From positions 124,001-188,000 of the forward strand of contig CP021220.1 in assembly GCA_003999685.1 (NCBI GenBank): a stretch of DNA of 64,000 bases, read 5' to 3'. Both the position numbers and the translations under genes were made by a program. Shown in pieces: positions 1,070 through 35,736 of this stretch (its first letter is position 1; the number at the start of each line of letters is the position of its first letter). A model generated the notes under the pieces. That model was not told where the DNA came from. It ran no database searches and saw nothing but the letters and a program-made list of their open reading frames with translations. Source of the DNA: Taiwanofungus camphoratus (Eukaryota; Basidiomycota; Agaricomycetes; Polyporales; Taiwanofungaceae).

Positions 1070-2229
1070 ATGAACTCGTACACGCGAAGGCCTGGAAGCC
1101 ATTATTACACACTGGCATCGGTGAGCTCGAGGGAAGGACCGGGTCAGTTCATTCCAGGCTCTGCTGTCCAGGCAAGCTCTGAGCTTGAGGACGATGCGGG
1201 AAAGAGCCAGGATATGGATAGACGAGAGACTCAGTCAATTCAGCTCTACCCAGGGTTAGGGCGCATATTCGTACGTCATTCATTCAAGATTCATCCTATC
1301 AATGCGCCGCGTTCTCACCAACTATCGGCTCAGCATGAAGACGACAAGCATATCTGGCTCCCACTTTTTGGGTGGGGAGGATTCATCTTAGCAGGGAGCC
1401 TTTGCAGTCGGTTCACGGGAATCCGCCTTCGCAGCATAGCCAAGTTTTCTGCTGTCCTGGGCCCTTCGACCTTCCTCTCCTGCAGATTACATAGAACAGT
1501 GGAGAACGTTAATCATGATCCAGCTCTGGCAGTGATATGGACAGTCGCGCTGGCATTCCAAGAAGTAGACAGGAGTGCCTTTCTCGAGGCCTGGTCTCCA
1601 AGTCCAAATGTCCACTCCCATTTTGACATGGCTAGCCCAAGGTTTTCGGAAGGTAAGTAATGTTATGGGCAAGAAAGCAATTAATTCATTCGTAGGTGCG
1701 TGCTTATGATGTCGCAGATATGAGGTTCACCCAATGGCTTTGGAAGCAAGTCAAATGGCGTACTGATCATACTTGGTCGAGCTCTGCCACTCGGGCGAGT
1801 ATAAGGGCAATGTTACAACACGATCTGGAGACAAGCAATCTGTCTCCGCATGACATAGACGTTTGTGTGACATATCTGGCGAACTCGATCGACAGTCCAC
1901 GATGGTTTGTGAGTGTCACTTGCACCTGTGTGCTATAATTGCTCTCTGATCCTGTTATGATTCTTCCGATGCATGTGCAGCACGTTGCCCAAGGTTCCAT
2001 CGTAACTGGTCTGGCTGCGTTGTCCTTGAAATACTTTGTAAGGCCGACACCGTGGCGCACACGTCTGCTGAGCTTCACAACTGTATCCAGCTGGGGGATC
2101 TGGATGATCACAGATTGCTTACGGGGCTATCAGCACATGGCGTATCCAGAAAGAATCCAAGATAAGCACGGGGTGGTCATGGCACTCGGCCGCAAGTTTC
2201 AGACAATGACTTCACTGACCTCCAGGTGA
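1070..2229 (+). CDS. hypothetical protein, three exons
   Basis: I do not recognise this family. Three exons join in frame: 1070-1652, 1718-1908 and 1981-2229, with introns of 65 and 72 nt, giving about 340 residues. The first acceptor was set at 1717 rather than 1695 because only the former keeps the frame (SPRFSE joined to MRFTQWLW). The N-terminal 70 residues are polar and probably disordered. Hydrophobic stretches follow (LPLFGWGGFILAGSLC, and LAALSLKY near the third exon), but none is a clear membrane span. The TGA at 2227-2229 overlaps a possible donor, so further 3' exons, for example around 2326-2544, cannot be excluded. A TATA-like element 70 nt upstream supports the start. Confidence 0.45.
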
Positions 2230-2599
2230 CTGCTGCTGGGGAGACGATGTCCAGCTGGCGAGATGTTGCAACCGGTCGTTGTCACTGTTCTGAACTTGAT
2301 GATGTATTCTAGCCGGGAATAGGATTTGAACTCGGGCACCTTCGTGACTCCACTCGCAGCAGATGGCGGTATGTCATGGTGTAGTGTGTACAAGAGCAAT
2401 ATGATTACCTTGACAATAGGCACTTATATCCTACTATTATTTGCGCAGATATATACATGCACTGAGGTCCCTCTGGCGCTCCTCATTTCCTTCCCGCTTA
2501 TCTCGATGGAACTCTGGATTCGTATAGTACAACAGGTTGCATAAGATACATGGAAATGTGTCAGTATCATGAGGATGCAGGAGGTCTAAGTAGTAAGTA
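2230..2599. other. short uncharacterised gap
   Basis: It holds an open frame at 2326-2544 with a hydrophobic segment (TIGTYILLLFA) that could be a 3' exon of the preceding gene, but no family match supports it. Confidence 0.25.
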
Positions 2600-2814: not shown

Positions 2815-4663
2815 TCACAACGAAGGCACAGGGACAAACGTGCCATGAAAACTGAAAGGAAAATGACTGTCCATCTCCGCCCTCGCTTCCTCCTTCATCT
2901 CCTTTGCGTCGAGTATAACCAGCATGCTCTTTTGCTTCTCGGCGTCCAGAACGACGCTGAGCAACACGCCGTCATCCTCCGCATCCTCAACTGGTGTCTC
3001 TGAACTGGAACGGGGACGGGGAACAAAAATAGGCTCTCCGGGCGTATAGCCAGGAGCTCCCCAGGTCTTAGGCTTAGCTTCGGGATTGGACAAATCAAGT
3101 TTGATCAGCCCGTCAGCGAACGTAGCCGTCTTGGTATCGGATTTATTGATCCCGTAGCTGAACAGACGGTCAGCGAATTCCGAGAACCTGTTGAACGAAG
3201 GACAGCCTACGCAAAGCGGTACGGCTTGTGGTAACGACCCGGATGCACAGTGGGAAGCTCGATCGAATACGTTTCTGGTATGGTGTACATCACTTTTGCC
3301 TGTCGAGTTGTTCCGTGACCTCCGCGGACGTCTTCCAGCACGAAGCGCCGGGCACAGCCCGCTTTCATGTGGTGGTGATCGTCGAGATTCCGCAGATTGT
3401 CGAGGTAGAACAAGTCGATGACTGAGTGATCGTCATAGACTGAGAGATCGAGGACGATGTCATCCGTCCCGGAATCATATGAATTGATCTGGTGAAAGGC
3501 GAAGAACGGCGGGGTCTGCAAGGAAAAGAGAATGTCGGTCATACTCGATTCAGACTGTTAAGCACGCCAGTGTTCACCTCGTACTTAGCCACTACGCCGC
3601 CATTGTGCCGATCAATGACATAAAACAATGCATTCCGCTTGGGATTCCACTTTTTATTTATAGAGCCTGCGATATTGCGATTGAAGACAATGCTCGCTCC
3701 AGAGCTGACCGTAAGTGGGTCAAATGACTTCTTATAACGAGGGACAAACTCGGCTCACTAGGTGAAGTCAGCTTGCCATACACATAACACAACATACTTC
3801 TGCGTCATCGCGAAGGAATGAAGATAGGCAGCTGGAGCATCCACGATTTCAGCTAGGACATCCACAGCGTGGTCCGTCCTGTCCGGTTCTGGACCATCCT
3901 TCTCCCCAGGTTTGATCCTAAACACTTTGTAAACTGGGCGCCTGCCGAGCTTCAGGGAAAAGTTGAAGAATTCGCCCGTTGTGTTGTCTCGACAGGAGTG
4001 TGCAGCACTAATTTGCCCGTCGAGGACGCGGTCGAACTCAGCGTACGTGGTAGCACGAATGGGCTGTAGGGTGTCAGGATTGAGAATCTGGAGAATGTTG
4101 TTGTCACTCTTTGCCACTAGATTACGAAGGGAAGATGAAGAGTGATGCGACGGGATACCATCCATATTGGTAGACAAAGTGACTGAGATGTTCTGGTCGT
4201 CTGGGGCACCTTGAGAAGGCGAGGGAAGCTGAGGCCTGAAGACGGTAAAGAATTTGGAGAAGATGGTCTCGCATGGATCCTGCGTCCCAAAGGTAAATCC
4301 TGGCACGGTACCAGATTGAGCAATACGAGTGTGGAGGCCCATAGCCGAGGAATGACTGCGATATAAGACCGAGCCATCTGGCATGATTTGGAACCGGTGG
4401 TTCATTCCAAGGCCGTCGAACCAATGTGCGATGTTAACCGCGGGCTTGGCTGGTGACGCCGATGGTACCCTGAATGTTCCAGGGCCTGTTCGATACAGTG
4501 AGCCAGTTAGCCATGTAGGGATCTGGCCTTGAACTCGAAGTGGGACGGGTTCTCGCTGTTCAATGGCGTTCTCAAACCCGATAGCGTAGCCTATATTAGC
4601 AGGGGCAGAAGGAGTTGGAGAGGGGGCGAGGACGGCCATCATGCGACGATACAACACAGACAT
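2815..4663 (-). CDS. carotenoid cleavage oxygenase (RPE65/CCO family)
   Basis: A non-haem Fe(II) oxygenase of the family that cuts conjugated double bonds of carotenoids and related polyenes. Four exons (3759-4663, 3578-3704, 3211-3515, 2815-3157) join in frame into about 559 residues, the usual family length. The four iron-binding histidines are present: about H222 (SAAHSCRD), H282 (AYLHSFAMT), H352 (FFAFHQINSY) and H550 (FSFHGTF). Other family blocks seen are GSLYRTGPG near the N terminus, HWFDGLGMNHRF and YGINKSDT. No signal peptide is visible. It is transcribed away from the P450 gene across a 1-kb gap and sits at the edge of the polyketide cluster, so a role on the polyene product is possible; that is inference. 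A second in-frame ATG lies 21 nt downstream. Confidence 0.9.
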
Positions 4664-5692
4664 TGGCTTCGCAGTGCGATGCGGGTTCGTAGGTGTTGCT
4701 CTTCAGACAGGCGCCAGCAACGTCTGGCGTCTGTTCGCCGAAACGGCCTGGGGAGGGCAGGTGTTGCAGCAGGTGACATCCCGGGAAGAGCTCCCAGGCA
4801 TGTCCGTCTCTTGTTCGCATGGCACAGGTGGGATGTGTCTTCCCAGATGAGAGCCGGATTGTCGAACTTCAGCATAGCCAAACCGCCGTAGTTCGCATCG
4901 TGAAAACGCAGGGCACGTGTTTTCTGCAACGAAGCACTGAAGCATTTCGTATGTCACGGTACTATGCACACCCCTCGAATCGCTTCTCCAGTATCTATTT
5001 TTTTACTTTTATCATCAGGTCTATCTATCATATCAAGGTTCAGAATCTAGCACACTTCGATGCCTCTGGCATGTTACTGTGTGTACTTACTAGCGCGCCA
5101 TGCGTAAAAAGGAGAATTCATTTCGGTCGCGAGGAAGATCATGGGACAAAGTCAAGGGCAGTACCCTAAGGCAGTTCACAAATACCACGCAAAGTGGAGT
5201 TTCTCCCCAAAAGGCCTCTGTCAACGATCGACCATCGACTCTTCCGTATTGATGGGATATCCTTTTGGCATTCCATCATTTTGACTCTACGGCGTCGTCT
5301 ATCCTGTGGTGACATATCAGACAGTGGATATATCCCACTCCTCGGGACATGCACTAGCAGCCGACGTGTCCAGGGTTTCCTTCTTATCGCAACCTTCCGC
5401 AAGACAATAAGAATCCGTCATCACTATTCGGAAGCTGTGTGCATTGCCCAATCGGCGGTCTGTTTGGTTCCATTTCTCCTCGTCTTTACGACAGCTCACG
5501 CCAACATAGTACGGGAGGATTTTTTTGACATTTTTTCGATTGGGGTATTACTTTCATTCTCGATATGGGCGATGTGCGAGATTTAGTCAGTAAACCTATT
5601 CTGCCCTTCCATCTCTATAATAGTCAGAACTCTCCAGTGCGAATACGGTCTGTGTCTAACGTGTAGGCCGGCTGGTTTGCTCTTTCATTACA
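4664..5692. other. divergent intergenic region between carotenoid oxygenase and P450 genes
   Basis: About 1 kb between two divergently transcribed cluster genes, so it should hold both promoters. Open frames here (for example 5194-5586 on the + strand) have no recognisable motif and are probably chance. Confidence 0.4.
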
Positions 5693-7799
5693 ATGGTTGT
5701 CCTTCTGCGAGCAGATGTTGTTGCCATCCTCACGATTTTCGTGGGGGGCTATATTGTTAGGCAAATTGCTCTGTTACGCAGAAGATCAGCGTTCGCTCGT
5801 GGTCCGCGTCGCTGGCCAATCCTCGGTAACGCCTTGGAAATGCCGCGGACATACGCATGGCTGACTTATTCACACTGGGCAAAGATATATGGTATGTTTT
5901 GGTACAGTGACCATTTCAACCTGATGTTACAGTATACTTCGATCGTAGGTGAAATCGTCCAGCTCGATGTCTTTGGTCAACCAATCGTCATCCTCAATTC
6001 GACGAAAGTCGCAAAGGATCTGCTGGATAAACGCTCCTTGATTTACTCTAACAGGCCCCGCATGGTGATGCTCCCGCATACTTAGGGTTCTGACGTACTC
6101 ACCATCTATACGGGCATACAGGTAATGGCAGGCGAATTGTGAGCGTCATTGTTCATATCAACATTGAACACGCTGACACAGATTCGTATCCGAGTAGGGC
6201 AGGTTATGGCGAGGTCTTCGTCGCGCAGCCCTATGGTGACAAGTGGCGCAAGCAACGCAAGCTAGTTAGCCAGCACTTTGGCCAAGCCATTATATCCCAA
6301 TATTCCCAGGTACAAGAGATGGAAACTCGAAAACTGATATACAGTCTTGTGCAAGATCCAAGCTCACTAGTGCATCAAGCTAGGCTGTGAGTCCTCGACA
6401 CATGATCGGGGACGATGTGCGTACTGATGCCTCCCCATAGGAGGATAGGGAACATTATTTTGCGCCTGACTTACGGATACTATGCATCATCCGAATCTGA
6501 TCCTAATCTCATGAAAGCGTTCCGTGCACAGGAGAATTTCGAGAAAGCTATTACTCCTGGCGCCTGGCTTGTCGATGTCATCCCTCAACGTAAGGAAATA
6601 TGGTCTTGATATCTTTGATTGACCACCCAGCATGTATTCAGTCAAGTACATGCCGATCTGGATGCCTGGTTCTGGATTTATCCGGATGGCTGCAAAGTGG
6701 CGACAATTACTCTGGGATGCATCTTGGAGCGCGTATTTGTTCGCTAAAGACGGCATCGTATGTCTCGATCTCCGTAAATACTGCTTATCCATGCGTTGAC
6801 GAGCTGGTGTTCCACAGGAGTCGGGTACGGCTCTCATGCCCAGTTTGTGTGCAACAGCTCTTTTAGAGATGGATGGGAAAATAACCAAGGACGCGGAGGA
6901 GACCCTGGTTTGGGCTGCATCCACTGTAATAGGAGCAGGGCTAGACTCGGTGAGGCCTATCCTGCTGCGACATGAGCCGCCGTTTTGAACGCTCTCGCAT
7001 TTTTCAGAATTTGTCGACCACGTTGACGTTCTTCCTCGCCATGGTTCTGCATCCAGACATTCAGGCGAAAGCAAGGGCAGAAATAGATGCTGTCGTAGGC
7101 CAAGACAGGCTGCCTACCATTGCCGACAAAGCGTCCTTGCCTTACGTCCGGAGCCTAATAACAGAAGTCTTCCGATGGCATCCCGCTGTACCTCTAGGTA
7201 ACTCTTGAACAACGTCAAGTGGGATGGTTGGTAGCTAAATGTTAACAGGCATTCCACACGCGTTGAGCAAGGAGGACGTTTACGAGGGTATCTATCTGCC
7301 GAAAGGTTCCTTGATGATACCGAATGTTTGGTCAGCATCTGCTTCCATACTTCACTCTTGCTACGGAACTTCTTATAGGCTCCTGCAGGCACATGCTACA
7401 TGACCCAGAGGTCTATCCAAATCCCATGGCTTTCGACCCTGATCGATACCAGAAGCTTGATTCCGAGATGCAGAAAGTGACTGATCTAGCATTCGGATTT
7501 GGCAGACGCGCTTGCCCTGGGCTTCACCTCGCTGAGGCCACCGTCTTTTCTATTGTTGCGACAGTACTCGCCACCTGTGAGATCCTGCCTGAGGTCGATA
7601 CAAACGGGAAGGACATTATCCCGGAAATCGCTTACACGTCTGGAACGATCACGTAAGTCGTCATCGCGCTGCTCGTAGTTCCTGTTGTTGAATTTCGGTG
7701 CGGGCTGCTAGATTCCCGAAGCCATTCAAGTACAACTTGAAATGCCGTTCGGCCCAAGCGATGTCAATGCTCTCTCAAGCTGTGGCCGCCTCCGCTTGA
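5693..7799 (+). CDS. cytochrome P450 monooxygenase (microsomal, CYP64-like)
   Basis: A haem monooxygenase, probably ER-anchored by the N-terminal span VVAILTIFVGGYIV followed by a basic, Pro-containing hinge (RGPRRWPILGN). Family marks are the I-helix region TVIGAGLDS..LSTT, the K-helix ExxR (LITEVFRWHP), the PERF-like FDPDRY and the haem-binding FGFGRRACPG with its Cys thiolate. The gene has about ten exons. One is a 17-nt micro-exon (6122-6138), needed to rebuild MAGEL between NRPRM and AGYGEVFVAQPYGDKW. The last intron precedes FPKPFKYNLKC and the TGA at 7797-7799. The sequence resembles the O-methylsterigmatocystin oxidoreductase-like P450s common in agaricomycetes. Its position between the oxygenase and the polyketide synthase points to tailoring of the polyketide. 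Confidence 0.92.
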
Positions 7800-9557
7800 T
7801 ATAATTTCACTCGCTATTCCAACACAGCTGTATTGTGCCTTGTCGCAAGCGAAAAGCGAAGCGGCATTGAGAAGCATTGGCTCATTCTATGATTCTAGTT
7901 TACTTGTATAGCGTTGAACCTTCTTACCAACTTTTTGTTTTCGCTGTCAACATTACCGCTCAAAATTCAGATAAGGGATGAATGAAGCTGTTGGACCGAT
8001 TAGAGGACAGGATGTCTGACAGTACTATTGGAGATATGGTGGCAGACAAGCCGTAACTCGATGGTCTTCGCACTTTTGTGATAGTTCAGCGAAAAACGTT
8101 TATATATAATTCACCTAGAATGGATCGTTTGCGTCGAGAGTGGCAAAACAGGATGACCATATTTGACCCAACTTTGGCTCTAGAGTCAAAAACCACTGGA
8201 AAACGCACTCGTGCCGTACATTAATGAAAGTTCGAGAGCGAGTACGTAAGTGTCAGGGGATCTGAGAATTTAGATGTCTCCAACTTATAAGGACCGTACT
8301 CGGGATCCAAGCAAGTGCGATCTAACGGAGCCGAGAAGAACAGGGGTGTAAAAAAAAGTCGGAATCGCCGGCCTTTCTCGTGTTGGAAGAGATTCCCGAA
8401 GTTAAATTGGCCTACCGGGCTCAGTGCAGCGGAATTACGTCCTGTGACGAACACAAAACACGAATGAGATATTATGACTTGCCGTCAATATTCCGCGCCA
8501 TTGCCGTGCTTGAACAAGCAGAAGAGAGTTGGAGACTCATAACCTTGCGCGTTCTACACCCTTATATGATGTCATATTGTACCTCTCAGTACTTACGCAC
8601 GCTCAGCATGAGAATAAGAAGCTCAGACGAATCCGCAAGCAAAGGATTGCATTATATACATACGCTACAACTCATCTCCAAATGGGAATATACTCCAAAC
8701 TGTTCCAGACAATCAAGGCAATTAAGTTAAATTTGAGTTTTGCTGATGTTCATAATCAAAGCTCCGGTTGGATAACGGCCGCGGTTATTGAATTTAGTAG
8801 ATAAGTGTCTAGAGCAAATGTATCTCCGGCTGGTGAGTTCTCACGGTAGTCACTGCAATGGCCAGCCCTTGAAGCTTGAATGCCCTCACATCACTTCCAA
8901 CTGTCTTGAAGGCTATTGCGCGCTCACGAGCAGAAGTCATGGTTTCGCGCTGGTCGATCTATTTGATGTCACGCTGGCTTGTGTATTGATTTTCGCCTCG
9001 AAGAACGTTTTGGCATCATGTCAATGACAGTGGATTGGAACATGCAGTCAAACGGCTCAAGTACATAAATCTTTATGAATGTTTACTCACAAATCCGTTC
9101 GGCGTTCATGCTGAATCATCTTATGCAGTCGAACCGGCGCCCGCAACAGTTACAGCTACTGAATTTGTTCTAGTGCGTGATTTGGGCGCTACATGTACCG
9201 ACATTGTCATTATGGCACTCTGCTGAAGGTGAGGTGACCTTTGAAAATGGGGTTTCCATGATATCCCATTCTTTTGGCTCACTTGATTGCTGTCATTTCA
9301 CTGAGATGAGATTGCTCATGGATCTTTTCCGAGGAATACTGTCCTATCAGAGTCCCTGCACAGATTGTCAGTTCTGCCGTATATCATTCGGATAAGATGC
9401 CATCGCATGTAGAGACATTGGCTCTAACCGGGCTAGTCTTAACGTCATGTACCGAATAAGTGCCAAATTGCCGCAAGCTGAACTCGTGGAGATTGTGAAC
9501 GAGTTTGCGAATATAAGGAGTTCATGTAGACATGATTACATCCTGTCACCAAGAACA
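7800..9557. other. 1.76-kb region without a supported gene
   Basis: Separates the P450 from the polyketide synthase. Several frames of 60-116 codons exist on both strands but none carries a family motif or a convincing splice pattern. The 3' UTR of the P450 and the promoter of the synthase must lie here. Confidence 0.4.
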
Positions 9558-12500
9558 ATGCGCTCTTCTGTGAAACAAGCACCATCTTACACCAATCCCG
9601 ATCCCAAGGCGATAGCCATCGTCGGTATGTCCATGACGCGTCACTGTCCCACTTTAAACCCCAGCTACGTCGAGTCACAGCGTATTCTGAGCGTTTCAAT
9701 TAACAGGGATGTCAATCTCCGCGCCTGGAGGCGATGGCATCGACCACGGCCTGGACGTGGCTGAATTCTTTGAATTTCTTTCCCGTCGCGGTTCAGGGAT
9801 TACCAAGGTACCACTCGATAGGTGGAATGCTGAAGCATATTATGGAAATGGCCCAGGACAGATATGTACTGTATGTACACCGCTTGTTTCAGATTATTCT
9901 ATACTATATAGACTGATATTTGTACAAGACTAAAGGAGGGTTTATCCCAGATGTATTCAATCATGATGTTCTTGAGTTTGGGATCACACCCAACGAGGTA
10001 TGTGGTTCTTAATCACGCGGAGCCCCCCCTCAATGTTCAGCTATTCTGTCGCTTCGTTCAGGCTAGTCAGATGCATCCGACCCAAACGAGTGCTCTGCAC
10101 CAAGTTTTCAACGCACTCCAACGCTCAGGTATTGATTTTCGAGGCAGTTCAACCGGCGTATACGTTGGATGTGCCGGAGGCTCCCCTTCTTTTGAACTGG
10201 ATATGACCGAATGCCGTGAATACTATATGACAGGATCTTCGCTTAGCATCGTCGCCAACAGGGTCTCCTTCATATTTGACATGATGGGACCTTCTCTTCC
10301 CGTTGATACGGCATGTTCGTCCTCCCTGACAGCCATGCATTTAGCTTCTCAGGCAATTCGAAACGGTGAATGCGACCAGGCGGTCGTAGTTGGCGTGAAT
10401 TTAATCATAGGTCGGTCTGCATTTTGAGCGTCGCTACCATATTTGAGATTATGTGTTCCAGATGTCCTTCAATCGTCCAGTTTCTCTCAGTTGGGAGTGC
10501 TAAGTCCCGATGGCATATCTAAATCGTTTGATGATGGTGCAAACGGATATGCTCGCGGCGACATCAGTGAGTCTGAGGTTTCAAGAGGTCGTCTTACTTA
10601 TGATGATCTCTGTTCATGTAGTCTCTGCCGTTGTTATTAAGAGGCACGACCTGGCTGTCGCCGATGCCAATCACATCCATGCTGTCCTTGTCGGCACAGC
10701 CTTGACTTCCTGTGGATCCAGCATGGGTTCAATCACGACGCCGAGTGGTGAAGCTCAAAGTCTGGTTATCCGTAACGCCTACGCCGATGCCGGCTTGTTG
10801 CCTTTCCAGGCTGATTTTGCCGAGCTCCACGGAACTGGTACCGCAGTAGGCGATTCAATTGAGGCCAATGCTGCTGGCGCCGTGTTCAGCGAAGGACGCA
10901 ATGGGGACGAGATTCTCATTGGGTCAGTCAAGAGCAACATAGGACACGGTGAAATGGGGTCAGTGATGCAAACATTTGTTAACATTCACACAAGGCTGAC
11001 AGTCATTTTTGCAGTGCATATATGGCATCGTTGGTTAAAGTACGTTGTGTCTCATTCTGTCCATCTTCGATAATTGAATGTTTCGAAACATGTGGGCAAT
11101 TGCAGGCTGTGATGATGTTGGAGAACAATGTGATTCTTCCAAATGGTTATTTCCAGAAGCCTTCGTCCAAAATCCTGTTTGCTCAATACAATCTTCGCGT
11201 CCCTACTCTGGTGGAGAAGCTCATACCTAGGGACCCAAAGCTGGGTGCTATCATTTCAATCTCCAGCTTTGGTTTCGGGGGTAAGTTGCGAAGTTTCGTG
11301 ATGTTAAATTATGTACTGATTGGTTCCTGCAGGTTCTTGTGGTCATACTGTTCTTCGTGCGCATGAGCCGAGGCCTACGCTTCCTGATTACCGTAATGGC
11401 GCTGCGCAACAAGGACCTTATTTGTTTTCTGCAGGCGGTTGGTCTCCGCGGGCTGTAAAGTCTCTCGTCGAAGCATACCGAACCGAATGTGACGATGTAC
11501 CCTGTGGGGCGCTGTCCGAGCATCTGGGGTCCCGTGCCCGTCAAGCTCTTTTTAGGACCTTTGTAGTTGCTGACTCAATTGAAAATGCAAAATTTCCTGA
11601 CCCTGTCGTTGTTCCTAAGCGCCCACCTCCTTTACTTTTCTGCTTTTCCGGTCAGGGTCCGCAACATTGGGCGATGGGACGAGGTGAATCTAAAATGGAC
11701 ATTTGATTGAAGGGATCGTGCTAAGAGTCCGACTTGTTTAGATCTCACGGCTCGTTTTGACGTCTTCAAGCAAAGCATCCTTGCGTCAGATGCCATCCAC
11801 ACGCAGTATACCGGAGAATCGTTCGTTGAACAGACAGGGTTATTTGTTTCCGGACCTTGCAAGAACTCAGATTTGCAGGAGAGTTTCATATGGCCGGCCG
11901 AAATCATCTCTATCAGCATCACATTCTTTCAGATTGCACTCTTTGATTTGATGCTCGATCTTGGTTTGAAACCGACGGCTGTCGTGGGACACTCCATCGG
12001 AGAGACTGCGGTTTTGTACGCTTCGGGTGCCATGCCCAGAGAGGTACGAGAGGTTGAAACCTGTCGCTAAACTTGCAATGTTTAACTAACATGGGCATAC
12101 TTCTGCACTCCAGATGGTAATCAAGATCGCGATTGCTCGTGGACGTGCGCTTAAGCTCGTCGATTCTCGTGGGGGCACCATGGTTGCTATATCGGGCTGT
12201 GACTCTGCGACTGTTCGCGACCTTATTGAATCCTCCCTAATCATGTCGCAAACTGAAGTCAAAGCTGGAGATTCATTACATATTGCAACATACAATAGCG
12301 CAACGGACATTGGAGTCTCCGGTCCTGACTATCTTGTGGACCTATTGATTAACTTCATTGATCGATGGGTGGAAGGCGTCAAAGCAACCAAGCTTCGAGT
12401 CAATACTGCCGTTCATTCTCCATATGTCGAGCCATGTCAGTGGCAGTATCGTGAGGAGTTGAGCAAAATTTTCTCCGAGCACCCTGGTCCTCATACCCCT

Positions 12501-15500
12501 ACCATACCCACTATGTCCACTGTTTCTGCCAAATTTGTTTTCGGAGAGTATACAGTCGAGTATTTGTGGGAAAACCTTCGCCAACCAGTCCAGTTCTATC
12601 CTGCTATCTCATCTTTGATGGATAAGTACGGCAAGGACACCACATTTGTGGAGATCTCTTCTCATCCAGTATTGAGTGGTGTAAGTTCTTTCATTCAGTT
12701 TCTTTTCATGTCTCCATTGTTGGGCGACGCTCACGCATATCTCTGTGCAACTGATAGTATTTGAAGGTGATAGGGGCTAAGGAAGCTGTAGCGTGTAGCA
12801 AACGGCCAGTCTTAGCTCGTCACCTTAAGCATGGCAGCAAGCCCGTTACCGAGGTGCATACACTTTTGACGTCCCTTGGACAGCTCCTACTCGTTGGCGT
12901 CAACTCGGTTTGTTAGCTTGTAGGTCGTGCTTTGTTTCCTTCTTGATGTATCTGCACCTAGATCAACTTCGCCAAACTCAACGGATGTGCACCCGTTTTC
13001 GAGGGGGAGCCGTCTTACCCATTCCAAAAGAAGTATTGGCATCAAGCTTACAACACTCCTAGTCACGCGATGAGGCGACTTCCACGTACTCGACCACTGA
13101 ACAACGAACGGCTGCGTGTCAGTGCGGTGTTGCCTGAATCTTGGATGGGTGATCATGTGCGAATGTTTTGCTGTATCACCACATACCTAGACTGATTTGA
13201 TTGATTGAAGGTCATCAACTTTACTAATCTTATTCCTGCAGCAGCTTACATCGAAATGCTACTGGAATTCCCCGATGTCACGATGGTATGGGATTGTCGT
13301 TTTGAGAATGCTTGCATCCTAGATCCCAAGGTGCCAGCAGTCACTCTTGAAGTGAAGAAAGATGGCAATTTCGTAACAGTCAAGTCATCAACCGGTCTCG
13401 AAACCATGGCAGGTGACCTTGCTTGGACTCGCAGCTCACCAATATTTGATGTTCAGCATGCAAGTGGTAAATTGGGGTATGGCAAGCCGGACCTTAGTGC
13501 AGATTGTCTTCAGTTTGTCGACGTAGATGCCCTTCAAGCTCGCTGTTCGAACTCGTATACTCGTGAAGAGTTCTACAACTTTTACTCTGATATTGCTCAA
13601 TTTGGGCCAGAGTGAGTGCTACTCTCTCAACTGATATATAAGCTTCTCTCTGATATCATTGTAGATTCAAGCGTGTCAATCGTGCAATTGCCAATGAAAC
13701 AGAGGGCATGATTTGGGTACGTTATAAATGCTCTCATTCAAATACCAGAGTCTTGACGTGCTTCACTCCAAAAAGATTAAAGGATCGGCACAATTAAATC
13801 AGACGGACTATCACCTTCATCCTGCAATTATTGGTAAGCTTCATCTGACATGCTAATTTGGAGTTAGATCAACCCTCACGTGTCAATCTTTACAATAGAT
13901 GCCTGTTTGCAGTCCGTCGTCGTCTGGAGTCTTCAGTCGGACAAAATTCACACAAATGATGGTCGACCCGACTACTCGCTTCCTCATAGCCTCAAGCGGG
14001 GTTTCCGGAATGACGGATCGACCTCTCCATTGAACCCTTCCGACGAATGCAGGGTCTATGTCACGTTGAACGGATGGACTCCTGATTCGTGGGAGATCAG
14101 CGCTTACCTTCTTGACGATTATGGACGGGTCCTGTTTACCTTGGAAGGTGAGGCCAGTTCTATTGCTACCATTCTTTGCTGAATCAGCCTTACCTCCTTC
14201 CTCAAGGTGTACGTTTTGAGAAAGTCCAACAAGGTATTCCCTGGCCTGAAAGTCGCTTCACGGTTGAGTGGCAGCCTCACGTGTTACCTGAACATATGAT
14301 CGCCCGGACAACGTGGTTGAAAAGGGTCTGTCCAGAGCCAGAAGATATACAATTGTTGCGGATATTGGACCGTTTGGCGATCAGCTATACCCAAGACTTT
14401 ATGTCTTCATCCCCACCTGATATCTCCTCTTGTTCGTCAGATCGTCAACGATATCGGGAATGGTGCCACTACCAGGCTGGGAAACCTTCCGTAGGAAATC
14501 CGTCTTCGATTCATATCCCAGAGGGTCTTCGCAACAAGTTTGCTCCACTGTTTGAGTTATCGGAAAGGGTAGCCAATGCTCAGCAAGGTCTTTCCTGACA
14601 CTACGTTTATTTTGATCTAATATTGATAACAATTTACTTAAACGCAGATATATCTTCCAGTTCCACTGCAGCTGTTGATGCACTCTTTTCTGACAATATT
14701 ATGTCACGTATATATGAATATCCGCCATTCTGCGGTCCCGTATTTTCTCAGGTCGCGGCAGAATTTGTGACTCTAGTGCGGCAAATTGTGGCAGCGGGGA
14801 AACGGGTGGTCAGGGTCTTGGAGGTTGGTGCCGGAACTGGTCGACTGACAACTCTACTTGGCCAAGCTCTCGTAGACGCCAATTTGAGCGATATTCATAT
14901 CGACTACGTCTGCACGGATGTTTCGATATCACTCGCTCAAGAAGCAACTTCACGCACGCCGTGGATGACCGTAACCCCCCTCGCACTTGACATCACTGTT
15001 CCAGTAGCTTCTCAAAACGTCGATCCAGCTAGCTTTGATATTATCACAGCGTTCGACGTCATACATGCTGCACCACGTGTTGACGAAGCTTTGAAATTCC
15101 TCCGTAGTCTTCTTGTTCCTGGGGGCTACCTTGTTGTCATCGAACTGGACGGTGAAATATTCAAGTCGGGCGCAGATGGAAGTACTTGTACGCGATCTTT
15201 CCCATCGTATAATCTCTCCTGGCGTCTAACTCCCAGCTTCTTTTCCGCTTGATACCTTAGGGCTCGATTGGGTATTTGGGAGCTTCCGCGAGTGGTTTGA
15301 TCTGGGTATGCGGCCCTCAGGGACAAAACATTGCACTCTGAATCAAGCCGACTGGGAGGACGTGCTAACATCATGCGATTTTACCTCGTCGTTTTGGCTT
15401 CCCGATAATCACATCAATATTGCAGATCATCTTTTGTTCGTCTCCCAAGCACGCATCCCAAGTGTGACCACAGAAGGACTCTCTTCAGCTTCTGCTCTCC

Positions 15501-18500
15501 CTAATTCCACCGTGATCCGACATTTCCGTGCAGGCGATGAGCTTGATCTTGTGTCTTTCTTTGCACAACTCGATTCCGAGGCCACATATTCCATCTGGCT
15601 TCATACATCTGAGGAGGCAGAAAATACCACGCTTACCGGGATCGTTCGGACATTGCGTCAGGAATTTGCTCTGTTCAAGATTCACCTTGTCCTCTTCGAC
15701 CTCACATGGTCTTCCTCTCGTCAAGTGCACTTCATCCAAACCAGTTTAATTCCTCTGCCTTGGATTGATGCGGACATTTCGGTTAATAAAGCTGGCATCT
15801 ACCAAGTCCCTCGAGTTGTCGTGGCACCTCCCCCTGTGATGACAGAGCAAGCCAAGTCAAAGGCTCTCAATTTTGAGCTCCAAGGGCACGATGTCGAGAT
15901 TTGGCGGGGTTTTCCGCCTCCCATAAGAGACAACGAGGTCGAAGTTGATGTGGCTATAGTTTCCACATCACCTGCATTTACAGGATTTTCTGAATTCTCG
16001 GGAGTCATTTCGATGATGGGACAAGAAGTAGATGCACGGAGATTGTCTATTGGTCAAAAGTAAGGTTTTACTTGTCACAATAGTTTCGATCCCAAACTCA
16101 ACTACGTTCCTTGTTTTCTCTTCGGAGTGTTCGGGTTGGTTCCCCATACTCCTGGAAATATAATTGTTTGCTGTGCATCATGCGTCGCTCCTGTGCCGAC
16201 GGGATGGAGCTTACCATTTGCTGCTGCTATCGTTGGCCGTTTACTTTTCTCAAGGTTTACAAACGTATTGGTGGACAATCCTCATCCAGTGACAGCGGGT
16301 ATCATTCTGCACGCTGGCCATGGTTCCTCGGCTGCCTTGTCCGTGTATAAGACCTTAGCTAGCAGATTCCAGAAAGTTATGGTTACTGTGAACACCTTTG
16401 ATGCTAGCGCTTCATTCCCATTGAAGCTATCGGGAGATGCTGGTCCCTTCGATTCTGCCAGTGTGTCGACTTGGGCTATGGCAGCTCGAAGGCTCTACGG
16501 TCAAGGAGTTCAGTATGCTTTTGTTTTTGACCCTTCCCCAGATGTCTTGCACGAGACTATCTCTTTGCTCGGTCCTCGAGGAACTCTTGTGTATCTTGCG
16601 TATCCCGGAAAAGCACTTACGATTCAGTTGAAATGGTCGCAAAAGTTCATCTCGGTATCTCCTCAACAGCTTGTAGATGAATTATCCATTGAAGAATCTG
16701 TTGCAACAATCACTCCTGACCTCCTCTCATCTCTCGCGCCGCACTGCCGTGTTGTGGATTTGCACCTACTCCGATCCGGCCTCGATGATACCACCCATCA
16801 GTCTTCAGCCGATGAAGTTTTGCTCACTGACCTCCGGACATTGTCCCCAGATCTTGCCGTTTTGAGGGGAGGTATTCGTCCGGATACAAAGGTTTTCGAT
16901 CCTCGAAAATCGTATATTCTGATTGGTGGTATTGGCGGTATAGGCTTTGCGATTGTTCAAGTCATGGTCCAGTTTGGCGCGCGTCACATCATTCTTACTT
17001 CTCGATCTGGTGAAAAGGTGCATTCCTCATTGCCTGGCTGGTCGTCCGATATTACTAACAATGGTGATACCTCAGGCCTTCTCTGGTGGGAAGCTGGCAA
17101 AGGAAAAGAGAATTCTCACTTGGCTAAGAAGCCTCCCTGGTGTTCAGATCGATCTAGTTGCTCTAGACTGCGTTGATTTTCAAGGGATGAAAGCGATGCT
17201 GCGGTCGCTCTGCAACCCAGTCGGTGGTATCTTTCATCTTGCTGTGGCTCTCGCGGATGCAATGGTAAGCGCACATTGGCTTACTGCCGACTACACATTC
17301 TCATTGCGTTTGTGCTGGCAGTTCACCACGATGACATGCAGAGACGACTGGGACAAAGGTAAGATTTATATAGCGCCCGTAATCCCAGCGTCTTACCCCT
17401 GTTGTAGTATATGATGTCAAAGTGAAAGGTCTTCAGGTTATATTAGATGCCGTAGATCCAAAGTCACTAGACTTCCTTGTCTTGATGTCGAGTATGGCAT
17501 CAGTGACTGGTTCCCCGGGACAGGTTGGTTTCACGGCTCTGATCTGATGCAATCACTCCTGCTTACTTTCTTCTCGTCCACCACAGGCAAATTATACTGC
17601 GTGAGTGTGCCCTTGATCTGGAAGAAGCTATATTGTGATGATAATCAAATTACGTACTGAAAGCGCTCAGACTTGGATGGAAAGTCTTGCTACCAAGATA
17701 CCGAACACCACCACCGTTGCTGTTCCACCCGTGGTATGCATTCTGAATGTTGATAAAAATGGTTCATCGATATTGCTCACACTACGGATTCATGTTCTCA
17801 GACGGACTGCGGTATATTCGCGCGTGCTCTTTCAAAGGTCCAAGGCAGAAATGCCGCATTAGACAAGGTCACCACATTCAGACAATAGTCCATATTGTTG
17901 ACCTGATCTGTCTTCTAGTATACGAAACTCGGTGTGACTGGCATCGAGTTAGCTTACCATTGTATCGAAGCCATTCGGTCCATCGGTACTGACAAGCCGG
18001 TCACCTTCTACATTCCTCCGATGAACTGGAGACAAGTTATCGAAAGTAGACATAGCCCTCCTTCGAAGTTGCCTTTTCACGTTACTTACATCATGATTTA
18101 CAGCTAACGTCGTTCCCTACACCCTATCGTTGTTGCGTCACTTAGTCAAGAAAGAGAGTAACGACAGGACTGAAGACGGGACGGGGAGACACACGATCCG
18201 CGCGGAATGTGCTAAGGTTTTGTCGCTTGACACTGATCAAGTCGAAGTCAATGTGCCTTTATCAACCTACGGCTTAGACTCCCTCACGTCTGGTTAGCAG
18301 TAGCTCACGCTGTCTTATAATTAAGACTTACTTTTTGACTCTCTCTAGTTCGTCTTTCCAATAGTCTCAAAGCCAATTTCGGCGTGATCGTCACACAGCT
18401 TCAGTTACTGGGAGGGAACATGACAGGTCAATATACTTGCGGTTTCGCCGATGTCTTTCGCTGACACAGTCTCATAGTATCTCGATTGGAAAGCATGCAA

Positions 18501-19608
18501 GAAGAGCAGCTACTGGAGGCATCAGCTTCAAGATCCAGAAACACAGCCATCAATGGTTCTGCACATTCTGAACAAAACCAGATGGTGGATCTGAGCAATA
18601 CCCTGGTTCCGCTCAATAATGCAGAAGATGGGAAACCTCTGTTCATCATACAGTCAGTCCCTAGTTTGAATTTTAGCTTCTGTGAGCACTCATTGTGGCA
18701 TCGCATAGCGGCGCCGGAGGTGGTGTTCTGGTGCTGCAGAAGATGGCAGAACGCCTGCCTTTCCCCGTTTATGGCGTTCAGGATACAGTGGAAGCTCCAT
18801 TGATGGGCACTCTTCGACGCCTCTCCGCATTCTATGCTCAGAAAATCCGAGAGAAGCAACCTAATGGATCATATCGCCTAGCTGGCTTCAGTTTCGGTAC
18901 GTCCCAGCCTATTCACTGGTCCTTGATTAACGTTGTGGTGCATCCCTCTAGGCACCGCTGTAGCTCTGGAGATCGCGATACTCTTCCAGGCCGAAGGGCA
19001 GACTGTAGAGTCGCTCATCATGCTAGATGGATCTCCGACGTTGTACGATGATTCTCAATTCAGAGACCATACAATGTCCCAGATTGCGTCTGGTTCTCTT
19101 CGTGAAGATGTGAGTGGCCTGTTGCTTCCATAGCAGTGGTACGGTTGCTTATTGTTATCGTGATGCTATGTTCTGCATTCAGATCATGAGGATCATCCGT
19201 GATATGGTCGCTTCTGAGACCCTCGATGGAACAAATGGGATACTGGATCAGTTTACCAAACACTTCGATCAGAGCGAAGGCTCTGGCTCCCACTGGGTTC
19301 GACGATTCTGCGCTGCCTACGCCGCACACATCATGATGGGTCTGCGTGCCGCCATTGAATGGGAGAAGGTCGTCGGCACCTCCCACTCCCGCGCCTTCTC
19401 TCAGGTTATGTGGCCGACCAAACGAACCGTCTTGATCAAGGCGAGCAAGGGAGTCGCGTCTCTGTCGCATGCATCGAGCGTGTCGCCTATGTTCAGCTTG
19501 GAGAAGCACACGAGTGCGGTGGAGGTGCACGAGCTCCAGGGCACGCACTTTGGCATCTTGCATCCCGAGTCTGGGATCGTCGACGTCATGACCAAGATCC
19601 TTGCGTGA
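9558..19608 (+). CDS. reducing iterative type I polyketide synthase, KS-AT-DH-MT-(ER defective)-KR-ACP-TE
   Basis: Builds a reduced polyketide chain from malonyl units. Reading is interrupted by roughly twenty short introns; the start is the ATG at 9558 (first intron between KAIAIVG and MSISAPGG). Domains in order: KS (about 9.6-11.4 kb) with DTACSSSL, ELHGTGTAVGD and KSNIGHGEMG, so the Cys-His-His set is complete; AT (11.6-12.7 kb) with GHSIGE; DH (13.0-14.2 kb) with its His in WMGDHV; C-methyltransferase (14.7-15.2 kb) with EVGAGTGRLT; an enoyl-reductase-like block (15.8-16.6 kb) whose NADPH loop reads HAGHGSSAA instead of a GGVG-type motif; KR (16.9-17.9 kb) with IGGIGGIG and SSMASVTGSPGQANYTA; ACP (18.2-18.5 kb) with GLDSL; TE (18.6-19.6 kb) with GFSFGT and LDGSP. 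A polyene with methyl branches is the expected product type (inference). I recall basidiomycete polyene synthases (BY1, Laetiporus) with similar layouts but cannot confirm this here. Confidence 0.93.
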
Positions 19609-20115
19609 GATACGTGTTACATGACATTTTCTTGCACTTTCATTACCATGCAATATGAGAAATAGCTTCATTTGGTTTCGATGATATGCCGCATACTTTT
19701 GTACAACTACATAGAGAAAAATCGAGATTCTGCTCTGATTGCGCCTGGGCGCGCGATCTGAACACTTGGAATTTGCCGGGCAAGTTGTAAGATCTTCCTA
19801 GGTATACTTACCTGCCTGAAGAACAACAATTATAATGTCTTTACAAACCCATGTGCGCATCTATACTGATTATTCCAGCTTTCACGGAGTCACACATCCA
19901 TTTGCTCGTCAACTGTGAGCAGGTACCTGAGGCTGCCTGTCAGTGGGGATGCGCATCAAACAATTGGGAACAACTCGCTCCAAGGCCTTCAGCGTGCGTT
20001 AGGAAAAGAAGATGAATGTATGATGTACATATGCGCTCAGACGACGAAGGAGGAGGCCAAACGTCGAGCGCTCGGTAACCTATGTGCTCGATGTTACACA
20101 ATACAATATCCCGGA
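19609..20115. other. convergent intergenic region
   Basis: About 500 nt between the converging 3' ends of the polyketide synthase and the methyltransferase. Nothing beyond UTR sequence is seen. Confidence 0.4.
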
Positions 20116-21060
20116 CTAGGACATGAGCATCGGAAATCCAAGAAACGTACAAGAAAACGGGGGTGGCCACCGGGCGAAGAGCAGAAAAGCATTCAGGGAC
20201 GGATGGACTAGATGGATATGTTCGACGACAGGTTCAACACTTGTGTACGTAGAAGCGCAGTTGTATCGAAACTGCGGGTGCAGAGGTGCATCACGCAATC
20301 GCTGCAGACGACTAATCGTGCATGGCTGTAAGCAAGAATTAAAAGCAACCGGATAAGATGCAGCACTCACCATGGCCTTGCCTAATTTCGCGAACGGCTT
20401 GCGTGCTGTGAATAATGCTACAACTCCCACCACTTGCACCTCTACGTCTTCAAATTGACTCTTGAGAGCCTTCTCGAGATCATCCACGCTGTCCTCTCGG
20501 TTTCCAAAAATGCCCTTGTCGTTGTAGATCCACATCAGGCACCTGCCTGGCCAGTTGTGACGCACGTCCCGGCCAAGTATGGTCGCGCCGTAGACCACTC
20601 CACCGGGCGCAAGCGCAGTGGCAAGGTTCGCAAAAACACAGCTCGCTTTCTCGGGAAAGGCGCCCGGGAGGCAGTGGAGCACGTAGCAGAGCGAGATGGA
20701 GTCAAACTTGGCGCGCAGTGACTCGGGAAGCGGGAGGAATATGCTCTGTTGCACTTTGTCGACGGGCCCGGGATATCCGGCGTGGCGGAGGCGACGCTCG
20801 GCGGTAGCGAGTGTGTTGGGATTGAGATCAAATAGTGTGACGTTCTTCGTCTTGGCGAGGTGGGACGCAGCGGCGGCGGGATAGTAGCCTGTGCCAACAC
20901 CAACGTCAAGGTGGGCATTCTCACCAATATGCCTCTTCCAGAAGGGAACGAGAACGGAACGCGTGGGGCAGCGCCAAATCAAGTAGTTTGAGACGAACAA
21001 GACGAAAAAATCGTACGTCCACAGGATGAAGCCCGCGTAGTAACTGGCAGAGGCATCCAT
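20116..21060 (-). CDS. SAM-dependent class I methyltransferase
   Basis: A small methyltransferase of the kind often found beside fungal polyketide synthases. The N-terminal region (SYYAGFILWTYDFFVLFVSN) is followed by motif I HLDVGVGTGYY, the acidic VTLFDLNPNTL and the post-I region SISLCYVLHCLP. It is open as one 314-codon frame. A 45-nt segment (20326-20370) begins GTGAGT and ends TTACAG after LGKAM and is divisible by three, so it may be spliced out or retained; relatives usually end soon after ALFTARKP, so the last 70-80 codons are the least certain. It converges on the polyketide synthase, suggesting O- or C-methylation of the product or of an intermediate; the substrate is unknown. Confidence 0.85.
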   Translation of the reverse strand: MDASASYYAGFILWTYDFFVLFVSNYLIWRCPTRSVLVPFWKRHIGENAHLDVGVGTGYYPAAAASHLAKTKNVTLFDLNPNTLATAERRLRHAGYPGPVDKVQQSIFLPLPESLRAKFDSISLCYVLHCLPGAFPEKASCVFANLATALAPGGVVYGATILGRDVRHNWPGRCLMWIYNDKGIFGNREDSVDDLEKALKSQFEDVEVQVVGVVALFTARKPFAKLGKAMVSAASYPVAFNSCLQPCTISRLQRLRDAPLHPQFRYNCASTYTSVEPVVEHIHLVHPSLNAFLLFARWPPPFSCTFLGFPMLMS

Positions 21061-34300: not shown

Positions 34301-34534
34301 ACCACCAACACTTTCTCGACAAAGACAGACAGGAAATCTCTTAAATTGAGGAAATGGCCTCGTAGTCTTTTCAAGTGCACATCGGATACCGCAATCAAAC
34401 ATGAGAAAATATCTGCATTGTGCCCTGATACAAGGGAGGCGGCTCATGCCTTACATCTTGCTGTGGCGGAATTGCGTTCGGAGAAGAATTGTCGGTTCCA
34501 GCGTTGGGTTCCATTCATCCATCTGGGACTCTGA
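31380..34534 (+). CDS. TPR-like repeat protein with C-terminal CHAT (caspase-fold) domain
   Basis: A member of the large mushroom family in which helical repeats are followed by a CHAT protease-fold domain (clan CD, related to separase and caspases). Five exons (31380-31469, 31522-31794, 31873-33510, 33566-34176, 34234-34534) join in frame to 970 residues. Repeats such as DLEDAVKLYQEALRHYP and QLDEAISLYREVV fill the first two thirds. The CHAT domain starts with RLWWCATGPFAFLPIHAAG and keeps its His-Cys dyad, H797 (VHLACHG) and C838 (LSACETA), then FRGVVATMW and the end RWVPFIHLGL, as in the family. The start at 31380 follows an in-frame stop 27 nt upstream, but an earlier 5' exon is possible. 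The dyad suggests an active cysteine protease; the substrate is unknown. Confidence 0.88.
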
Positions 34535-35063
34535 AGCTTCAGGCAGATGCTCGACTATTACAATTATTCTACTTGCAGCATTTTGTTCTAGTTATGTGGT
34601 GATAGTTCCAAAACTATTTTATCTCGTTACTAGCTACGATTTTCTGGGTCCAATAACCAGCGGTTCCGGAACATCTGCTACTGCACTACCTTTCCGCTTC
34701 CTCCCCGAGCTCCCATCTTTAGGTTGTGCTGTTGACGGCGGCGGCATATAGGTAACTGGTCGCCATTATCCCCCGTCCCCGCGTCCCCGCCGGCGAGTCG
34801 GCGTTGTCTGATGCACTCACGGTCACGTGGAGGGTCTGTCGCCGACCCCGTGGAAACCTAGTAGCAGAGTGACTGGCCTCATAGCGGTTTTCACGCAGAC
34901 ATGCCATAATTATTTAGGTTCAAGCTCAGGCTGCAACCATCGCCCTCTGAGCGGCTGAAGCTGCACCCAGGGGCTACGCGTGATTTGACTTCCACCTCGT
35001 ATTCACTGTGAAGTTTCCTATCTACGGTGCAAACTTGGTGTCGCACCGACATTCTTTGCTCAG
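34535..35063. other. intergenic region
   Basis: About 530 nt between the CHAT gene and C2-like exons; nothing recognised. Confidence 0.35.
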
Positions 35064-35700
35064 ATGGCGGACAAGCAAGAGACGTCCTGGCAGTTAACCA
35101 CTTCTAGCCCCATTGGGAGTTCAGTCAACTTGAAAAAAGATCATACCACTGCTCTCGAGCAGCGATTTGAGATCACCAGGAAGTAAAACTTTGATGTTTT
35201 TATGCTATTTATTTTCCGATCTCTTTTGACAGTCATGAGCTCAAATCTCGGAAGAATTAAAATGCGCTATCCTAAATGCTTTGTTGTTGTTCGGTGCTGG
35301 TCCAATAGCTACAGAACTACGATTTCCTCCAGAGCGAAGGTAATCGAATGGAACCAGACCTTTTGTTTGTGAGCTAGTAGCTCTTGCAATACAGAGCCAT
35401 CGTCTCTGATCTTTTCGGGAAATTCAAGCGTAGCACAAGTCGCACAAGTCCAAGACATTGTTGAGATCAGCCTTTATCGCAAGACCAAGAAGACGGAGTA
35501 TCTAATTGGACAAGTCATTGAAAACTTGCTACACCTTCCCAGGAACGAAGGTAATGCATTCATTAAGCATTCATGGAGTTTCCAACATTATTCATCTATC
35601 TGCCTTTATCTCAGTGCTGACCAGGGTATGTTCAAATCCTCATAAGTCTTCTAATCATACCATCTCCTTTCGCATTGGAGATACTGCCATCAGGTGAGTA
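35064..35700 (+). CDS. C2-like N-terminal exons, probably of the caspase gene or of a decayed gene
   Basis: The frame from 35064 (MADKQETSWQLTTSS..) and the frame around 35220-35560 encode LTVMSSNLGRIKMRYPKCF, VVVRCWSNSYRTT, KVIEWNQTF and, further on, IVEISLYRKTKKTEYLIGQV. This is the order of strands of a C2 domain (a Ca2+/lipid-binding fold that often opens mushroom CHAT and caspase proteins). I could not find fully convincing introns between the pieces: the stop after NQTFCL needs an intron of under 35 nt. So either the exon layout is unusual or the segment is degraded. It lies just upstream of, and on the same strand as, the caspase core. Confidence 0.45.
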
Positions 35701-35736
35701 TTGGAACTGTTCCATATATCAGCACTGCCTCACCCG

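What the first reader, a model, noticed from the sequence alone, without database searches (positions are those of the whole stretch)
2815..21060. Polyketide cluster with a carotenoid-type cleavage oxygenase
A carotenoid cleavage oxygenase with all four iron histidines lies next to a P450, a reducing polyketide synthase that should make a polyene, and a methyltransferase. Such oxygenases cut conjugated chains, so the enzyme may cleave or shorten the polyketide polyene rather than a carotenoid, yielding an apo-polyenal-type product. No carotenoid-synthesis gene is in the window. The gene set is seen in sequence; the substrate idea is inference.
Basis: partly seen in the sequence, partly recalled or inferred. 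Interest (0 to 1): 0.75.

Follow-up and report, generated by a model that had tools for sequence, protein, structure and literature searches.

The report
Orphan carotenoid-cleaver beside polyene synthase
A wood-rot mushroom in whose genome no carotenoid-making genes were found keeps one carotenoid-cutting type of enzyme, and its gene sits next to genes that probably build a different coloured chain molecule, so the enzyme may cut that molecule instead; this fits the gene map but has not been tested.

Summary
Confirmed: four neighbouring genes encode a carotenoid cleavage oxygenase (CCO, 563 aa, four iron histidines), a divergent P450, a KS-AT-DH-MT-ER0-KR-ACP-TE polyketide synthase (PKS, 2691 aa) and a small methyltransferase. 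Two contig lengths equal published chromosomes, so the genome is Taiwanofungus camphoratus W1 and the CCO is almost certainly the published orphan AcW1_0042. It is the only CCO found in the genome. No lycopene-cyclase domain, CrtI-type desaturase or convincing phytoene synthase was found, and four opsin-family loci lack the retinal lysine. The PKS has the architecture of the mushroom polyene synthases LpaA/PPS1; residues of stilbene-type CCOs are absent. Best reading, by inference: the CCO cuts the PKS polyene to an omega-oxo polyene acid. Weak points: the PKS needs an intron with poor splice signals (16053-16127) and could be broken; no shared promoter motif; the methyltransferase has two paralogues elsewhere; expression and synteny were not testable. 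My paper searches found no report linking this CCO with a PKS; supplements could not be read.

The parts
2815..4663 (-). Carotenoid cleavage oxygenase (CCO), 4 exons (4663-3759, 3704-3566, 3515-3211, 3157-2815), 563 aa; iron ligands H222, H282, H356, H554; second-shell D187, E434, E491
   Evidence: (RPE65, E 6.2e-106); only CCO found in the genome
4664..5692 (.). 1029-bp region between the divergent CCO and P450 start codons, a possible shared promoter
   Evidence: no gene model scoring above 6.8 there (my threshold elsewhere was 18-22)
5693..7801 (+). Cytochrome P450, 11 exons, 513 aa, heme motif FGFGRRACPG at residue 432
   Evidence: (p450, E 3.4e-66); best solved match CYP1B1, E 5.6e-46, uninformative on function
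9558..19608 (+). Highly reducing-type polyketide synthase KS-AT-DH-MT-ER0-KR-ACP-TE, 34 exons, 2691 aa
   Evidence: enoylreductase-like stretch degenerate (HAGHGSSAAL; ADH_zinc_N 23.1 bits against a cut-off of 31.8)
16053..16127 (+). Doubtful PKS intron (75 nt, donor GTCAAA, acceptor ending TCGGAG) that must be removed to skip an in-frame TAA at 16061
   Evidence: Second weakest donor of 46 introns; lowest combined score of nine in-frame alternatives
20371..21060 (-). Class I SAM-dependent methyltransferase, 230-aa core (open frame runs on to 20116; 3' end uncertain)
   Evidence: paralogues 69% (C14) and 64% (C3) identical

Best explanation
A three- or four-gene polyene locus with a recruited carotenoid-type cleavage oxygenase. 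The PKS builds a C-methylated conjugated linear polyene acid (its enoylreductase is degenerate, so double bonds stay) and its thioesterase releases it. The CCO, a non-heme Fe(II) enzyme held by four histidines, binds this chain and splits one C=C bond with O2, giving an omega-oxo polyene acid (an apo-polyenal) and a short carbonyl fragment. The P450, divergent from the CCO, oxidises precursor or product, and the methyltransferase may O-methylate it. Shown: gene content, order, strands, domain order, active-site residues, a single CCO, no carotenoid pathway found. Inferred: joint function, substrate, cleavage site, order of steps, product.
For: Only CCO found in the genome; lycopene-cyclase domain 0 matches, CrtI model only 31- to 41-residue N-terminal pieces below cut-off, of two SQS_PSY genes one is squalene synthase and the other scores poorly against phytoene synthase models; the four opsin-family loci found lack the retinal lysine; the published analysis agrees that al-1 and al-2 are missing. 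PKS domain order equals that given for LpaA, ER degenerate. CCO aligns over nearly its whole length with a carotenoid cleavage dioxygenase (6vcf, E 1.2e-58) and keeps the iron site. CCO and P450 diverge over 1029 bp and no other convincing gene lies between the four. Chance adjacency about 0.2%. Mushroom polyenes with aldehyde or acid at the far end exist, and their genes were not found by the limocrocin authors.
Against: No expression, chemistry or synteny evidence. PKS may be broken or mis-spliced at 16053-16127. No 8-mer common to the three upstream regions. No aldehyde dehydrogenase among the genes of the locus (the 19 Aldedh rows lie elsewhere; only 11 of 58 candidates were scored). The carotene-cleaving CAO-2 is named as the closest N. 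crassa relative. The first-shell Glu is Asp (D187). Methyltransferase has paralogues in other surroundings. The passages I read report no such product from T. camphoratus.
Confidence: 0.5

Rival explanations
1. The CCO cleaves carotenoids, apocarotenoids or other polyenes taken up from outside, and its place beside the PKS is a coincidence or a remnant.
For: Its solved relatives are carotenoid or retinoid enzymes; closest N. crassa relative is the torulene cleaver CAO-2, and CCO expression does not differ between mycelium and fruiting body (PMC8865532); no shared promoter motif.
Against: No carotenoid source in the genome was found and no retinal-type opsin to use a product; adjacency to a PKS by chance is about 0.2%.
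Confidence: 0.2
2. The locus is decaying or the PKS is inactive: the stop at 16061 truncates it before KR, ACP and TE, and the CCO is a leftover.
For: The required intron has the second weakest of 46 donors and a poor acceptor and scores lowest of nine alternatives; DH motif reads HVINFTNLIP with Phe at the usual Gly, and KR reads YTAAQ for the usual YxxxN (consensus motifs recalled).
Against: No other stop in 2691 codons, all 33 PKS introns GT-AG, codon bias kept on both sides of the junction; all 15 active-site or cofactor motifs that I looked for are recognisable except in the ER.
Confidence: 0.17
3. The CCO acts on the polyene but does not cut it: isomerisation, hydration or other chemistry, as RPE65 isomerises.
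For: RPE65, a non-cleaving member (recalled), is among the better solved matches (E 7e-37).
Against: A cleavage dioxygenase (6vcf) matches much better (E 1.2e-58); the second-shell acids resemble both classes.
Confidence: 0.08
4. A stilbene or lignin-fragment cleaving CCO, used in wood decay.
For: The organism is a heart-rot fungus (abstract of PMC8865532); NCBIfam lignostilbene models match weakly (52.1 bits, cut-off 800; 36.8 bits, cut-off 650).
Against: The Tyr/Lys pair of that class (recalled) reads F125/S186 by alignment; none of the 19 solved sequences up to E 10 is a stilbene cleaver; a carotenoid-type model scores higher, also below cut-off (97.3 bits, cut-off 675).
Confidence: 0.05

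Closest known systems
AcW1_0042, the T. camphoratus-specific dioxygenase (PMC8865532, section 14 read)
   Same: Same strain by two chromosome lengths and the only CCO found there; no al-1/al-2 orthologues in either account
   Different: The published main text that I read compares it with N. crassa CAO-2 and does not mention the neighbouring PKS and P450; locus number not verified here
LpaA and PPS1, mushroom polyene synthases (PMC7473843, discussion and passages read)
   Same: Domain order KS-AT-DH-MT-ER0-KR-ACP-TE; 2691 against 2729 aa for LpaA; inactive-looking enoylreductase
   Different: LpaA is described as sole enzyme needed for its product; here a CCO, a P450 and perhaps a methyltransferase are adjacent; sequence identity could not be measured
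CAO-2/CarT and CarX, fungal carotenoid cleavers
   Same: CCO family; CAO-2 named as closest N. crassa relative in PMC8865532
   Different: They act with phytoene synthase and desaturase genes (passages), none of which was found here
PDB 6vcf, carotenoid cleavage dioxygenase (archaeal NdCCD, recalled)
   Same: Closest solved relative, E 1.2e-58, same four histidines
   Different: Prokaryotic carotenoid enzyme; no PKS context known to me
Fma-ABM of fumagillin; SimC4/SmcC4 of simocyclinone (PMC11727611, passages read)
   Same: Fma-ABM oxidatively cleaves a polyketide polyene; SmcC4, placed by those authors in a family of carotenoid oxygenases, is proposed to help make a decatetraene dicarboxylic chain
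   Different: Fma-ABM is an ABM monooxygenase; for SmcC4 the authors propose terminal oxidation, and whether it is an RPE65-type CCO was not tested here

Membership tests
Carotenoid cleavage oxygenase (RPE65, PF03055) | Full-length profile match above the curated cut-off | tested here: met
   355.7 bits against 27, profile 2-469 of 469
Carotenoid cleavage oxygenase (RPE65, PF03055) | Four iron-binding histidines | tested here: met
   H222, H282, H356, H554 opposite the ligands of 6vcf (ligand identity in RPE65 recalled)
Carotenoid cleavage oxygenase (RPE65, PF03055) | Three second-shell glutamates | tested here: inconclusive
   E434 and E491 kept, the first is D187 (feature recalled)
Carotenoid cleavage oxygenase (RPE65, PF03055) | Oxidative C=C cleavage activity | not testable with these tools
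   Needs an assay
Stilbene/lignostilbene-cleaving CCO (CAO-1, NOV1) | Active-site Tyr and Lys for the phenolic hydroxyl (recalled) | tested here: not met
   F125 and S186 at these places through the RPE65 alignment
Fungal carotenoid/retinal or neurosporaxanthin pathway | Phytoene synthase/lycopene cyclase and phytoene desaturase in the genome | tested here: not met
   TIGR03462 0 matches, TIGR02734 4 short matches below cut-off, PF00494 two genes, neither a convincing phytoene synthase; the built-in controls were prokaryotic
Fungal carotenoid/retinal or neurosporaxanthin pathway | Opsin with the retinal-binding lysine | tested here: not met
   Four of four opsin-family loci read AGPV/IF at that place (consensus recalled)
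Mushroom polyene synthase (LpaA/PPS1 kind) | Domain order KS-AT-DH-MT-ER0-KR-ACP-TE | tested here: met
   order; LpaA order
Mushroom polyene synthase (LpaA/PPS1 kind) | Catalytic lysine of the enoylreductase lost (Gly in LpaA and PPS1) | tested here: inconclusive
   Ungapped reading against a recalled FAS motif puts Tyr there (YLAYPGK, motif at residue 1940), but a Lys follows shortly after; the glycine motif is degenerate
Mushroom polyene synthase (LpaA/PPS1 kind) | Sequence identity (LpaA and PPS1 share 68%) and polyene product | not testable with these tools
   Neither sequence is in the collections on hand
Mushroom polyene synthase (LpaA/PPS1 kind) | Intact reading frame | tested here: inconclusive
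   Depends on the intron 16053-16127
Co-regulated biosynthetic gene cluster | Contiguous genes, shared regulation | tested here: inconclusive
   Contiguous and partly divergent; no shared 8-mer in the three upstream regions; no RNA-seq on hand
Co-regulated biosynthetic gene cluster | Conserved neighbourhood in related fungi | not testable with these tools
   No fungal relatives held; one scan of prokaryote genomes with the CCO gave 0 confirmed relatives of 19 pattern matches

The most novel reading that the evidence does not exclude
A carotenoid cleavage oxygenase recruited to cut a polyketide polyene: the mushroom builds the chain with a PKS and turns it into an apo-polyenal the way other organisms turn carotenoids into apocarotenoids. 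The same logic could underlie mushroom omega-oxo and dicarboxylic polyenes such as calostomal, boletocrocin and corticrocin, for which the authors of PMC11727611 found no homologues of the bacterial genes in basidiomycetes.
Probability: 0.42. Interest if true: 0.8.

Novelty: new variant of a known kind. Interest (0 to 1): 0.56.

Why it matters
The orphan CCO is in print (PMC8865532) but, in the text I read, without a substrate. Placing it inside a polyene-PKS locus gives it a concrete one that can be tested cheaply. If right, it would extend the CCO family from isoprenoid and stilbenoid substrates to polyketide polyenes, offer a route to oxo-polyene acids whose biosynthesis in mushrooms is unknown, and warn against reading every fungal CCO gene as a carotenoid gene.

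Tried and rejected
Stilbene-type CCO: rejected on residues and solved matches. Retinal supply for an opsin: rejected, four of four opsin-family loci lack the lysine. A second CCO: none found. A carotenoid pathway elsewhere: none found. Shared promoter motif: 14 shared 7-mers, no shared 8-mer in the three upstream regions; its random control is inflated because random windows could overlap, so only the bare counts are used. Repeats in 4664-9557: five two-copy direct families and two inverted pairs, all short. Surroundings of the two methyltransferase paralogues: the models printed show no PKS or CCO to my eye; not scanned against Pfam. Identifying AcW1_0042 by counting genes from the contig start: my simple gene finder merges genes (the CCO came out as number 27), so this neither confirms nor refutes. 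Paper searches with no hits.
Full report
What is there. The window is C1:124001-188000 of a 33,194,378-base, 15-contig fungal assembly. Contigs C2 (3,401,759 bp) and C10 (1,738,909 bp) equal W1-ChII and W1-ChX of Taiwanofungus camphoratus W1 to the base (PMC8865532, section 9), so I take the genome to be that strain. Two figures do not match: the paper gives 33,373,109 bp and 16 superscaffolds for W1. The locus lies about 127-145 kb from the start of C1, which begins with telomere-like repeats.

Genes. Spliced models were made with a small codon- and splice-scoring script and corrected by eye against domain expectations. CCO: 563 aa, four exons, minus, 4663-2815. P450: 513 aa, 11 exons, plus, 5693-7801. 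PKS: 2691 aa, 34 exons, plus, 9558-19608. Methyltransferase: 230-aa core, minus, 21060-20371, 3' end uncertain. Pfam supports the four: RPE65 355.7 bits; p450 224.4 bits; ketoacyl-synt, Acyl_transf_1, PS-DH, Methyltransf_12, KR, PP-binding and Thioesterase in this order along the PKS; Methyltransf_12 46.7 bits for the last. CCO and P450 diverge over 1029 bp, P450 and PKS are 1756 bp apart on one strand, PKS and methyltransferase converge over 507 bp (the last distance is to the end of the open frame at 20116). No gene model above 6.8 was found in the gaps, against thresholds of 18-22 used elsewhere. Outside lie an NAD-dependent epimerase, a GDT1 antiporter and a short-chain dehydrogenase on one side, and an ArAE_2_N/BRE4 membrane protein, a caspase-domain protein and a DHH-domain protein on the other (models, Pfam on seven models or trimmed pieces); a 339-aa model at 1070-2544 has no Pfam match.

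The CCO. Aligned with its best solved relative (6vcf, E 1.2e-58), the iron ligands are H222, H282, H356 and H554. The second shell reads D187, E434, E491, with Asp for Glu at the first (RPE65 E148, E417 and E469, recalled). The places that carry Tyr and Lys in stilbene cleavers (recalled) read F125 and S186. Of 19 solved sequences up to E 10, 18 are carotenoid or retinoid enzymes and one is an unrelated designed protein; no stilbene cleaver appears. In NCBIfam an apocarotenoid model scores 97.3 bits and two lignostilbene models 52.1 and 36.8, all far below their cut-offs. It is the only CCO found in the genome: three matches that are exon pieces of one gene by profile and by its own sequence.

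No carotenoid context found. Lycopene-cyclase (CarR) domain: 0 matches. CrtI model: four matches of 31 to 41 profile positions at the N-terminus, all below cut-off. SQS_PSY: two genes. One is squalene synthase (PDB E 4e-56; TIGR01559 247.7 bits on a partial piece, cut-off 286.75). The other scores 37 bits against HpnD (cut-off 278.6) and 22.8 against a phytoene synthase model (cut-off 500) and shows no second Asp-rich motif in the piece read; from recall it resembles NDUFAF6. Built-in controls were prokaryotes, not fungi. Four opsin-family loci all read AGPV/IF where the retinal lysine would be (consensus recalled). PMC8865532 (section 14) reports a dioxygenase gene AcW1_0042, closest in N. 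crassa to CAO-2, in genomes lacking al-1 and al-2, with no significant difference between mycelium and fruiting body. With one CCO in the same strain this is almost certainly our gene, though the locus number was not verified. In what I read of that paper (abstract; sections 6, 8, 9, 14, 25; passages) it is not connected with a PKS; the supplementary cluster lists were not readable here and may contain the locus.

The PKS. Its domain order equals that given for LpaA (2729 aa, 68% identical to PPS1; PMC7473843, passages, discussion). Fifteen active-site or cofactor motifs picked by eye were located; the ER ones are degenerate (HAGHGSSAAL, and ADH_zinc_N at 23.1 bits against a cut-off of 31.8). 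The DH motif reads HVINFTNLIP, with Phe at the usual Gly, and the KR reads YTAAQ (consensus recalled). Using the first 837 residues, the nearest other PKS of the genome, on C12 and C7, are 34-43% identical piece by piece. A polyene product is likely, not shown; identity to LpaA could not be measured.

The weak point. To stay in frame the PKS must lose 16053-16127, which holds a TAA at 16061. Of 46 introns in CCO, P450 and PKS its donor is second weakest, and its acceptor score (-4.72) is the lowest among the 15 rows printed. Within the range searched nine single in-frame introns exist: the best-scoring has 24 nt, shorter than any intron modelled here (49-82 nt); the next has 195 nt and deletes part of ER0; the 75-nt one that preserves the domain scores lowest. 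Codon bias continues on both sides. Real damage, an assembly error and unusual splicing all remain possible.

Function. The parsimonious reading is a polyene pathway in which the CCO cuts the PKS chain to an omega-oxo polyene acid, with the P450 and perhaps the methyltransferase as tailoring enzymes. PMC11727611 (passages) lists mushroom polyenes with such ends (calostomal with an aldehyde, boletocrocins, corticrocin), reports that a BLASTP search of basidiomycete genomes with limocrocin proteins returned nothing similar, cites Fma-ABM of fumagillin as an enzyme that cleaves a polyketide polyene, and places SmcC4 of the simocyclinone pathway in a family of carotenoid oxygenases with a proposed role in making a decatetraene diacid. 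That is a possible bacterial forerunner of the idea; whether SmcC4 is an RPE65-type CCO was not tested. Against: no co-expression evidence, no 8-mer common to the three upstream regions, no aldehyde dehydrogenase at the locus, methyltransferase paralogues of 69% and 64% identity elsewhere.

Literature. Searches: (1 paper; 0; 758, 12 listed; 0; 0; 2; 5; 3; 12), 57 (2). Of the 12 papers I read passages of five: four concern carotenoid or retinal clusters of ascomycetes, one limocrocin; the other seven were seen as listings. I also read passages of PMC9602373 (L. sulphureus genome; four PKS close to LpaA; no CCO in the passages shown) and PMC3814326 (a Fusarium carotenoid cluster). The library is open-access only, so absence is weak evidence.

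Verdict.

Noticed in passing
L039 and L053-L065, first 1000 bases (starts of C1 to C14): All 14 chromosome contigs start with or close to arrays of the pentamer CCTAA (ACCTAA counted 9-22 times, CCCTAA only 0-3 times), while the paper states TTAGGG/CCCTAA telomeres. Either homopolymer collapse in long-read consensus or a real TTAGG telomere.
   Followed up: partly
L052 (start of C15, 150,773 bp): The one contig start without such repeats; its length differs from the 115,207-bp mitogenome reported for W1.
   Followed up: no
L020-L023 (C3, C11, C3, C7): Four opsin-family loci, all without the retinal-binding lysine (AGPV/IF instead); the piece in L023 also shows an in-frame stop in the frame read, perhaps an intron.
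   Followed up: partly
L035 (C14) and L036 (C3): Two close paralogues (69% and 64%) of the locus methyltransferase, in other surroundings; a three-member family of unknown substrate.
   Followed up: partly
window 1070-2544, +: Gene model of 339 aa with hydrophobic stretches and no Pfam match, between the epimerase and the CCO; could be an unrecognised locus member.
   Followed up: no
window 31380-37170, +: Gene model with a caspase (Peptidase_C14) domain behind a stretch that by eye resembles TPR/CHAT repeats; the model may fuse two genes.
   Followed up: no
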